Shown here: positions 15,047-18,364 of the stretch, one piece after another
How the letters are laid out: each line of letters starts with the position of its first letter
How positions within the stretch are numbered: the stretch's first letter is position 1
DNA from: JACPSX01 sp035288405 [NCBI: bacterium]
Lineage (GTDB): Bacteria > JACPSX01
Direction: 5' to 3'
Length of the DNA: 22,821 nt
Assembly (NCBI GenBank): GCA_035288405.1
Contig: DATEAK010000119.1
Coordinates: 1-22,821 of the forward strand
Made by a program: the position numbers and the translations under genes
The notes under the pieces: model-generated
The model's database searches: none
Told to the model about the DNA's origin: nothing
The model's input: the letters and a program-made list of their open reading frames with translations, nothing else

Positions 15047-16246
<1,200 letters not shown>

Positions 16247-16282: not shown

Positions 16283-16591
16283 ATGGCAGAGCAGAAAATC
16301 CGAATTAAACTCAAAGCGTACGACCACCGGATTCTGGATCAGTCGGTGGGTGAAATCGTGGACACGGCAAAAAGGACGGGTGCGAAAGTGGTGGGACCGA
16401 TTCCTCTCCCCACTATCAAGAACCGCTACACGGTTTTGCGCTCTCCTCATGTGGACAAGAAATCCCGGGAACAGTTCGAGATCCGGACTCATAAGCGGCT
16501 TCTGGATATTCTGGAGCCCACGCCCCAGACCATTGACGCTCTCATGAAGCTCGATCTTTCAGCCGGGGTTGACATCGAAATTAAACTGTAA
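16283..16591 (+). CDS. rpsJ: 30S ribosomal protein S10 (NusE)
   Basis: A 102-residue protein, the normal S10 length, beginning [20 protein letters not shown]. It contains [20 protein letters not shown] and [18 protein letters not shown]10 belongs to the 30S head; as NusE it also binds NusB and the NusG KOW domain. The frame is open upstream to TTG 16259, but ATG 16283 gives the conserved start and follows AAAAGG (16272-16277). It opens the S10 operon 36 nt after tuf. Oddly, rplC, which should follow, is missing: rplD starts 29 nt after this gene. Confidence 0.97.
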
Positions 16592-16620
16592 GAATCGCTT
16601 ACTGGCGGGAAGAGTGGTCC

Positions 16621-17244
16621 ATGACTCTGGACGTTCTGGATTGTCATAAGAAAGTCGTCGACACGGTGGATCTGAAGGATGAGATCTTCAACGTGAAGCT
16701 CAAGGAACACCTGCTTCACGATGTGGTTGTGATGCAGCTGAACAACCGGCGCCGGGGTACGGCTTCCACCAAGAATCGCACGGCCGTCCGCGGTAGCAAC
16801 AACAAACCCTGGAAGCAGAAGGGAACCGGAAGAGCCCGGGCCGGCACTCTGAAATCTCCTCTCTGGGTGGGAGGAGGGACCATCTTTGGCCCCCTGCCCC
16901 GGGACTACAAGTATCAAGTCCCCAAAAAGGTGCGCAGCGAGGCATTGCGGATGGCTCTGAGCTTGAAGCTCCAGAGCAAGCAGTTCCACGTGGTGGACCA
17001 GATTGAGCTGGGAAATCCCAAGACGAAGCAGGCTCTGGCTCTTCTGAAAGACCTGGAGGCCGGGGAGAATGTTCTCTTTGTCGTGATGGAAGAGAACAGA
17101 AATCTGAAGCTGGCCGTGAGAAACCTCCCCGGAGTGGATGTGTTGCCGAGTCGTGGGCTTAACGTTTACGACCTTCTAGACCACGAGCGAGTCATTTGCA
17201 CCCGGGATGCCCTGAACAAAATCGAACAGGTATTGACACCATGA
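16621..17244 (+). CDS. rplD: 50S ribosomal protein L4
   Basis: A 207-residue protein of normal length. The long rRNA-threading loop includes [20 protein letters not shown] and [16 protein letters not shown]. The C-terminal globular part ends [21 protein letters not shown]4 lines the peptide exit tunnel with L22 (encoded at 18685); in E. coli it also represses the S10 operon. It should be preceded by rplC (L3) but follows rpsJ directly. The Shine-Dalgarno is weak (GGGAAGAG, 16606-16613). The stop overlaps the rplW start by 4 nt (ATGA), indicating coupled translation. Confidence 0.97.
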
Positions 17245-17539: not shown

Positions 17540-18364
17540 ATGGCACTGAAAACCTTCCGACCGATTCCCTATTCCCGTAGATACTACAGCGTTGTCAGCT
17601 TTGCCGATCTCGATGGGAAGGAGCCCGAGAAGAGCCTCCTGCGTCCCTTGCGAAAGTCAGGGGGGCGCAATAACCTGGGCCGAATCACGAGTCGACACCG
17701 GGGAGGAGGCCACAAGCGTTCCTACCGGATCATTGATTTCCGTCGGGACAAAGTGGGCATACCGGCCCGGGTGGCTGCCATTGAGTATGATCCCAACCGT
17801 TCGGCGCACATCGCTCTTCTTCACTACGCGGACGGGGAAAAACGCTATATCCTGGCCCCCGTCGGACTGGCCGCCGGGGCTACTGTTTTGTCAGGTTCCG
17901 GAGCGGACATCAGGCCGGGCAATACCCTGGCGCTCAGGGAAATTCCACTGGGAACCATTATACACAATGTGGAGTTCAAGAAGGGCAAAGGCGGGCAACT
18001 CGTGCGCAGCGCCGGAACTTTTGCCCAGCTGATGGCCAAAGAAGGGGATTATGCCCAGGTGCGCCTGGCTTCCGGAGAGGTGCGGATGGTCCCCGTGGAC
18101 TGCATGGCCAGCATCGGGCAGGTCAGCAACGTGGATCACGAGAATGTCTCCGTAGGAAAGGCGGGCCGGAACCGGTGGTTGGGGTTTCGCCCCTATGTGC
18201 GGGGCGTGGCCATGAACCCGGTCGATCACCCCCACGGGGGTGGCGAAGGCAAGACTTCAGGAGGGCGGCATCCCGTCAGTCCCTGGGGACAACCTACGAA
18301 GGGCTATAAGACCCGGAAGCACAAGAAAGATTCGAATCGTTACATCGTGAAGCGGAGAAAGTAA
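17540..18364 (+). CDS. rplB: 50S ribosomal protein L2
   Basis: A 274-residue protein, the standard L2 length. It contains [20 protein letters not shown] near the N terminus and the universal segment [14 protein letters not shown] near the C terminus, which holds the histidine near the peptidyl-transferase centre; the end is [12 protein letters not shown]2 binds 23S rRNA and is required for subunit joining and peptide-bond formation. The start is ATG only 2 nt after rplW, so it is probably read by coupled translation. An AAGGAGGA site just after its stop serves rpsS. Confidence 0.98.

What the first reader, a model, noticed from the sequence alone, without database searches (positions are those of the whole stretch)
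16592..16620. rplC (L3) is absent from its near-universal place in the S10 operon
Seen: rpsJ stops at 16591 and rplD starts at 16621, with a clean 29-nt spacer and no L3-like reading frame in any frame there or elsewhere in the window. Known: rpsJ-rplC-rplD-rplW-rplB is among the most conserved bacterial gene orders, and L3 is needed for 50S assembly and the peptidyl-transferase centre. Inference: rplC has moved elsewhere in the genome, or it was lost from the assembly. The flanking genes are full length, so a deletion would have to be exact.
Basis: partly seen in the sequence, partly recalled or inferred. Interest (0 to 1): 0.8.

Follow-up and report, generated by a model that had tools for sequence, protein, structure and literature searches.

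The report
Ribosomal gene rplC left its operon
The gene for ribosomal protein L3 is truly missing from its usual place in this bacterium's ribosomal gene cluster; in the nearest relative found it sits alone elsewhere in the genome, and the same move recurs in other bacterial lineages, nearly always together with one unusual version of the protein's loop near the ribosome's active centre.

Summary
rpsJ (stop 16591) and rplD (start 16621) are 29 nt apart and the window holds no L3. An assembly gap is unlikely: the nearest relative found (Candidatus Tectomicrobia MAG, RplD 85% identical, here G001) has the same junction with a 31-nt spacer. Its single L3 is an intact 221-aa gene on another contig, between a CDC48-type ATPase and a glutaredoxin-thioredoxin reductase fusion. 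The window's own genome is not held, so relocation there is inferred. Stand-alone L3s nearly always carry one loop type (HG[T/S/A]HE..RHGG[S/A]IG or close): 16 of 17 against 15 of 123 operonic ones. They resemble each other more than seven neighbouring ribosomal proteins predict, even with that loop removed. The best reading is a stand-alone L3 lineage that repeatedly displaced the operonic gene by lateral transfer, as reported for ribosomal protein S4. Relocation is well supported; transfer is favoured, not proven: single-gene topology tests lack power, no genome holds both copies, and the second genome batch largely resamples the first batch's relocated lineages.

The parts
16283..16591 (+). 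rpsJ, ribosomal protein S10 (uS10), 102 aa
   Evidence: NCBIfam PRK00596 and TIGR01049
16592..16620 (+). 29-nt spacer where rplC normally lies; its 3' part is kept in the relative and is probably the rplD leader
   Evidence: sequence; alignment with L001; function inferred
16621..17244 (+). rplD, ribosomal protein L4 (uL4), 207 aa
   Evidence: NCBIfam TIGR03953, 254.8 bits
15047..16246 (+). tuf, EF-Tu, upstream neighbour of rpsJ
   Evidence: NCBIfam TIGR00485
17241..17537 (+). rplW, ribosomal protein L23
   Evidence: NCBIfam L23 models
17540..18364 (+). rplB, ribosomal protein L2
   Evidence: NCBIfam TIGR01171

Best explanation
rplC has left the S10 operon in this lineage and is kept as a single stand-alone gene elsewhere; the operon closed up between rpsJ and rplD. 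Shown: the junction in the window; the same junction in G001; one intact L3 on another contig of G001; the same arrangement in 16 further genomes. Inferred: that the window's organism has a stand-alone L3 too. Most likely history (inferred): a stand-alone L3 with the HE-type loop near the peptidyl-transferase centre spread laterally between distant bacteria, inserted at unrelated sites and made the operonic copy dispensable, which was then cleanly lost. In the window's own clade, where most operonic L3s have the HE-type loop too, the relocated copy may instead be its own former operonic gene. L3 then works in trans, made from its own transcript and joining the ribosome as usual (inferred). My confidence in relocation is about 0.95 for G001 and 0.9 for the window; in lateral spread of the stand-alone gene about 0.5. 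The figure below is for the whole statement.
For: Same rpsJ-rplD junction in G001. Single L3 match in G001, contig C288; it passes TIGR03625 (250.8 bits, cut-off 142.9). C288 has the bin's tetranucleotide make-up (r 0.931; 18 other contigs 0.879-0.972; pieces of the L3 contigs of 17 other genomes at most 0.852). L3 and L4 apart in 17 of 187 genomes, all 17 with S10 next to L4, 21-178 nt between match ends. HE loop in 16 of 17 relocated and 15 of 123 operonic L3s, Fisher p 1e-11. A two-residue insertion elsewhere in L3: 13 of 17 against 17 of 123 (19 of 123 at its other column). Relocated L3s closer to each other than seven neighbour proteins predict: z -14.5; loop masked -7.1; loop and insertion masked, distant pairs only, -6.6, controls -3.2 to +1.3. 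On 51 of the 140 genomes the seven other proteins reject one clade of the 16 HE-type relocated genomes (p-AU 9e-5, dlnL 409), while L3 does not (constrained tree 5.4 lnL better with the loop masked, 22.8 better whole). Independent pairs: of 9 on supported branches the HE loop goes with relocation in 7.5 on average and against it in 0.1, median p 0.016. Nearest picked neighbours of 18 stand-alone L3s share one weak match only (26%, G110/G178).
Against: The window's genome is not held. Single-protein topology tests have little power: L4 and L2 do not reject the 16-row clade either (p 0.18; 0.23; S3 does, 0.005), and three matched random sets for masked L3 are not rejected (p 0.32, 0.33, 0.14). 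Masked L3 does not reject the two clades of the concatenated tree that hold most relocated genomes (9 rows p 0.28, 20 rows p 0.19), i.e. it is also compatible with vertical descent there. With the loop masked, the 140-row L3 tree scatters relocation as much as the concatenated tree does (12 and 11 changes). In the second batch alone the loop-masked residual is not significant (z -0.9), and four of its five relocated genomes are sisters of first-batch ones, so it is no independent replicate. Three control proteins (S10, S19, S3) also lean negative (z to -3.2). No genome examined has both an operonic and a stand-alone L3. G082 is relocated without the HE loop. The concatenate does not reject G001+G050 as sisters (p 0.58), so their shared relocation may be vertical. 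The 16-row group left out G082 because of its loop, so it was not named by position alone. Neighbours were picked mechanically as the longest open frames, and some may be spurious.
Confidence: 0.6

Rival explanations
1. Repeated in-genome moves: in each lineage its own rplC was moved out of the operon with no lateral transfer, and the HE loop and insertion are either an older L3 type more prone to be moved or convergent changes that follow the move.
For: Loop-masked L3 trees do not group the relocated genes more than the concatenated tree, and masked L3 does not reject the two main concatenate clades. In the window's clade 6 of 7 operonic members of the 9-row clade already have the HE loop. 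No double-copy intermediates.
Against: Similarity between relocated L3s beyond the loop and insertion (z -6.6); two markers some 54 residues apart both go with relocation; a simple move of an own gene does not explain why 16 of 17 movers are of a type that is rare among operonic genes.
Confidence: 0.35
2. Assembly or binning artefact: rplC was dropped from the contigs, and the stand-alone L3 contigs are contaminants.
For: Many of the genomes are fragmented assemblies without names; the window begins in a tuf repeat, where contigs tend to break.
Against: The same clean junction in two separate assemblies; in 16 of the 17 relocated genomes L3 lies on contigs of 11.9 to 329 kb, in G001 on one of 4.9 kb; C288 matches the composition of its bin; one L3 per genome.
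Confidence: 0.03
3. L3 has been lost outright in the window's organism.
For: None; only that its genome is not held.
Against: L3 is needed for 50S assembly (established knowledge), and the closest relative found keeps an intact L3.
Confidence: 0.02

Closest known systems
Ribosomal protein S4 outside the alpha operon (Chen, Roberts and Luthey-Schulten 2009, PMC3087516; passages read)
   Same: A universal ribosomal protein gene found alone outside its conserved operon, as a particular sequence type (C- forms); the authors ascribe all S4 genes outside the operon to lateral transfer, with loss of the operonic copy where only the outside one remains.
   Different: L3, not S4; the types differ in a loop near the peptidyl-transferase centre rather than in zinc binding; no genome with both copies was seen here, whereas S4 has such intermediates.
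Ribosomal proteins with zinc and non-zinc forms and lateral transfer (Makarova 2001; seen only as a reference entry in PMC3353972; content recalled)
   Same: Core ribosomal protein genes replaced by other forms.
   Different: No zinc ribbon is involved in L3; L3 is not among the cases that I recall.
uL3 loop substitutions linked to tiamulin (Thermus thermophilus R144, E. coli numbering 149; PMC7345174, passages read)
   Same: The HE motif lies in the same L3 loop, 11-12 residues before that arginine, judged on the best solved-structure match (an L3 that I recall to be of T. thermophilus; its numbering fits R144).
   Different: Those are point mutations in one species; here it is a natural loop type, with no evidence on drugs.

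Membership tests
Standard bacterial S10 operon (rpsJ-rplC-rplD-rplW-rplB) | rplC between rpsJ and rplD | tested here: not met
   29-nt spacer, no L3 in window
Standard bacterial S10 operon (rpsJ-rplC-rplD-rplW-rplB) | remaining gene order kept | tested here: met
   S10-L4-L23-L2-S19-L22-S3-L16-L29-S17-L14-L24-L5-S14-S8-L6 named by eye from the translations; five of them (S10, L4, L23, L2, L6) tested by family; same order in G001 by tblastn
Bacterial ribosomal protein L3 (stand-alone gene of G001) | full-length match to the bacterial L3 model above its cut-off | tested here: met
   TIGR03625 250.8 bits against 142.9, profile 1-202 of 202
Laterally displaced ribosomal protein (S4-like case) | gene alone outside the operon, operonic copy gone | tested here: met
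   17 of 187 genomes
Laterally displaced ribosomal protein (S4-like case) | sequence type of the outside copy differs from most operonic copies | tested here: met
   HE loop 16 of 17 against 15 of 123
Laterally displaced ribosomal protein (S4-like case) | gene tree conflicts with the genome tree | tested here: inconclusive
   the concatenate rejects the clade and L3 accepts it, but masked L3 also accepts concatenate clades and matched controls show low power
Laterally displaced ribosomal protein (S4-like case) | genomes with both copies | tested here: not met
   no genome with two L3 genes

The most novel reading that the evidence does not exclude
A laterally mobile, stand-alone L3 gene with its own type of peptidyl-transferase-centre loop has displaced the operonic L3 in roughly ten separate bacterial lineages, so that a core ribosomal protein used in species trees has a transfer history visible as a break in the S10 operon.
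Probability: 0.45. Interest if true: 0.75.

Novelty: new member of a known kind. Interest (0 to 1): 0.58.

Why it matters
L3 is among the universal proteins used in concatenated trees of life and is an early assembly protein reaching the peptidyl-transferase centre (established knowledge). If stand-alone L3 genes were transferred, L3 should be left out of, or checked in, such trees, and one can ask why one loop type travels. Even without transfer, the link between leaving the operon and one loop type is unexplained and testable.

Tried and rejected
Assembly loss: made unlikely by the same junction in a separate MAG. Mis-binned L3 contig in G001: against it, composition (a first script gave no values because one fetched contig reads N throughout; it was dropped, leaving 18 of the 19 returned). 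One shared relocation of all 16 HE-type relocated genomes by descent: rejected by the seven neighbour proteins on 51 of 140 genomes. One ancestral insertion site: the nearest open frames on either side of 18 stand-alone L3s share one weak match only; they were picked mechanically, two loci had a frame on one side only, and some frames may be spurious. A sigma-70-like promoter for the stand-alone G001 gene: the scan found two sites on the contig (shuffles 1.5 on average), none in the 600 bases before the gene, so none is claimed. Random sets of operonic L3s as a control (all three rejected) were judged unfair because they split near-identical pairs; matched sets replaced them and showed low power. 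Taxonomy look-up of Tectomicrobia gave only three species names. Paper searches (listings only, those not complete): no listed title or abstract start reports rplC outside the S10 operon or transfer of L3; most subscription papers are not in that library. Phylum-wide surveys returned one genome each and told nothing.

Full report
Check. The window has tuf (15047-16246), rpsJ (16283-16591), rplD (16621-17244), then rplW, rplB and the rest of the S10-spc order (most genes named by eye from their translations, six tested by family). Between rpsJ and rplD are 29 nt. With 141 L3 proteins as queries the window gives no L3 match better than E 0.003, inside other genes.

Artefact or real. No whole genome is held for the window. 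One scan of named species genomes with RplD, which by its method reaches close relatives only, found three loci: a Candidatus Tectomicrobia MAG at 85% protein identity and two Saprospiraceae at 38-39%. The Tectomicrobia MAG (L001, genome G001) has the same rpsJ-rplD junction with a 31-nt spacer; 826 of 928 aligned bases agree. Over seven ribosomal proteins of this operon the two are 92% identical (1095 columns). In both Saprospiraceae the L3 match lies just before rplD.

Where L3 went. G001 has one L3 match, on contig C288 of 4,861 bases. It is a complete bacterial L3 of 221 aa (TIGR03625, 250.8 bits). The nearest convincing genes are not ribosomal: a CDC48-type AAA ATPase before it and a glutaredoxin-thioredoxin reductase fusion after it, both on the other strand. 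Tetranucleotide make-up places C288 in the bin (r 0.931; 18 other contigs 0.879-0.972; 4,861-base pieces of the L3 contigs of 17 other genomes at most 0.852).

How common. The tool gave 145 genomes as relatives of G001, unnamed and with kinship untold; their RplD is at most 56% identical to the window's, G001 apart. 144 have an L3 match and 143 an L4 match. One has neither (G004), one lacks L4 (G135), one only fragments (G085). Of 142 with both, 12 have them apart: G001, G050, G100, G110, G045, G101, G042, G031, G090, G035, G093, G082. A second batch of 47 genomes (named, placed) gave 45 with both and 5 apart: G181, G191, G188, G152, G178. So 17 of 187; a script checked 140 of them (123 adjacent, 17 apart), the other 47 were read by eye from the listings. 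All 17 have S10 next to L4 with 21-178 nt between match ends, stop codon included. No genome has two L3 genes; four genomes with more than one L3 row (G040, G108, G138, G180) have one gene in pieces.

A loop type goes with relocation. In the loop of L3 near the peptidyl-transferase centre, relocated L3s read HG[T/S/A]HE..RHGG[S/A]IG or close to it; operonic ones vary, often HG-S.FHR.PGSIG or HGQSDR.RAPGSIG. The HE pair is in 16 of 17 relocated and 15 of 123 operonic L3s (Fisher p 1e-11; first batch 11 of 12 against 12 of 92; second batch 5 of 5 against 3 of 31). A two-residue insertion some 54 residues upstream is in 13 of 17 relocated against 17 of 123 operonic (19 at its other column). The exception for the loop is G082. 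G135, which has L3 and no L4 match, also has the loop. The second batch is not a fresh sample: G178, G152, G188 and G191 are sisters of relocated first-batch genomes in the concatenated tree (support 100, 98, 100, 88).

Shared history or not. On a tree of S10, L4, L23, L2, S19, L22 and S3 relocation is scattered: 12 changes in 89 rows, the window among them, like shuffled labels (306 of 500 as low), and 11 in 140. On a whole-L3 tree of 89 it is clustered (8 changes, shuffled mean 12.3, none of 500 as low, G135 counted as relocated). Measured as distance left over after the seven other proteins are accounted for, relocated L3s are closer to each other than chance (z -14.5, none of 5000 permutations). 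With the loop masked z is -7.1, and within HE-type L3s alone -3.8; with loop and insertion masked and only distant pairs kept, -6.6. The same measure for the seven control proteins runs from -3.2 to +2.5 on all pairs and -3.2 to +1.3 on distant pairs, so small negative values are not telling, but L3 stands out. Second batch alone: -3.35, and -0.9 with the loop masked, not significant.

Tests of one clade, on 51 of the 140 genomes (the two concatenate clades that hold most relocated genomes plus 22 others, chosen by me). The seven other proteins reject the 16 HE-type relocated genomes as one clade (dlnL 409, p-AU 9e-5). L3 accepts it, masked (constrained tree 5.4 better) or whole (22.8 better). 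This looks like transfer, but single proteins have little power: L4 and L2 do not reject that clade (p 0.18; 0.23), S3 does (0.005, 46 rows), masked L3 does not reject three matched random sets (p 0.32, 0.33, 0.14), nor the 9-row and 20-row clades of the concatenated tree (p 0.28 and 0.19). The masked 140-row L3 tree scatters relocation (12 changes). The concatenate does not reject G001+G050 (p 0.58) or G001+G050+G181 (p 0.12). Pairs of genomes that differ in relocation on supported branches: 9, the HE loop going the same way in 7.5 on average, opposite in 0.1 (median p 0.016, range 0.004-0.125).

Insertion sites. The nearest picked open frames beside 18 stand-alone L3s (17 relocated genomes and G135) share no similarity by BLAST except one weak match (G110 and G178, 26%). 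So either separate insertions occurred or the flanks have turned over; some frames may be spurious.

Reading. Relocation is as good as shown for G001 and strongly implied for the window. That relocated L3s share more with each other than their genomes do, in two markers and in the rest of the protein, favours lateral spread of a stand-alone L3 and loss of the operonic copy. Within the window's own clade, six of seven operonic relatives also have the HE loop, so there the relocated gene may be native. The HE pair lies 11-12 residues before the tiamulin-linked arginine (T. thermophilus R144, PMC7345174, passages; alignment, organism of that chain recalled), in the loop that approaches the catalytic centre; what the type does is unknown.

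Known. Chen et al. [quoted passage not shown] Yutin et al. 2012 (PMC3353972, passages) on ribosomal proteins gave no passage on L3 transfer with the terms used. The listings of my searches show no title or abstract start on L3 outside the S10 operon.

Noticed in passing
1-140: The window opens with the last 46 codons of a second tuf gene, 100% identical over 140 bases to 16105-16244; secE and nusG, named by eye, follow, so two tuf copies flank the rpo region.
   Followed up: partly
L007 3369-4577: Next to the stand-alone rplC of G001 is a single 402-aa gene joining an N-terminal glutaredoxin to a thioredoxin reductase.
   Followed up: partly
L007 21-1988: A CDC48-type AAA ATPase with a CDC48 N-domain and two AAA stretches on the other side of the stand-alone rplC.
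   Followed up: no
G082 (L090, L091): The only one of 17 relocated L3s without the HE loop; it may be a separate in-genome move.
   Followed up: no
G058 (L094) and G112 (L095): Gaps of about 390-450 bases between L3 and L4 match ends in otherwise ordinary S10 operons.
   Followed up: no
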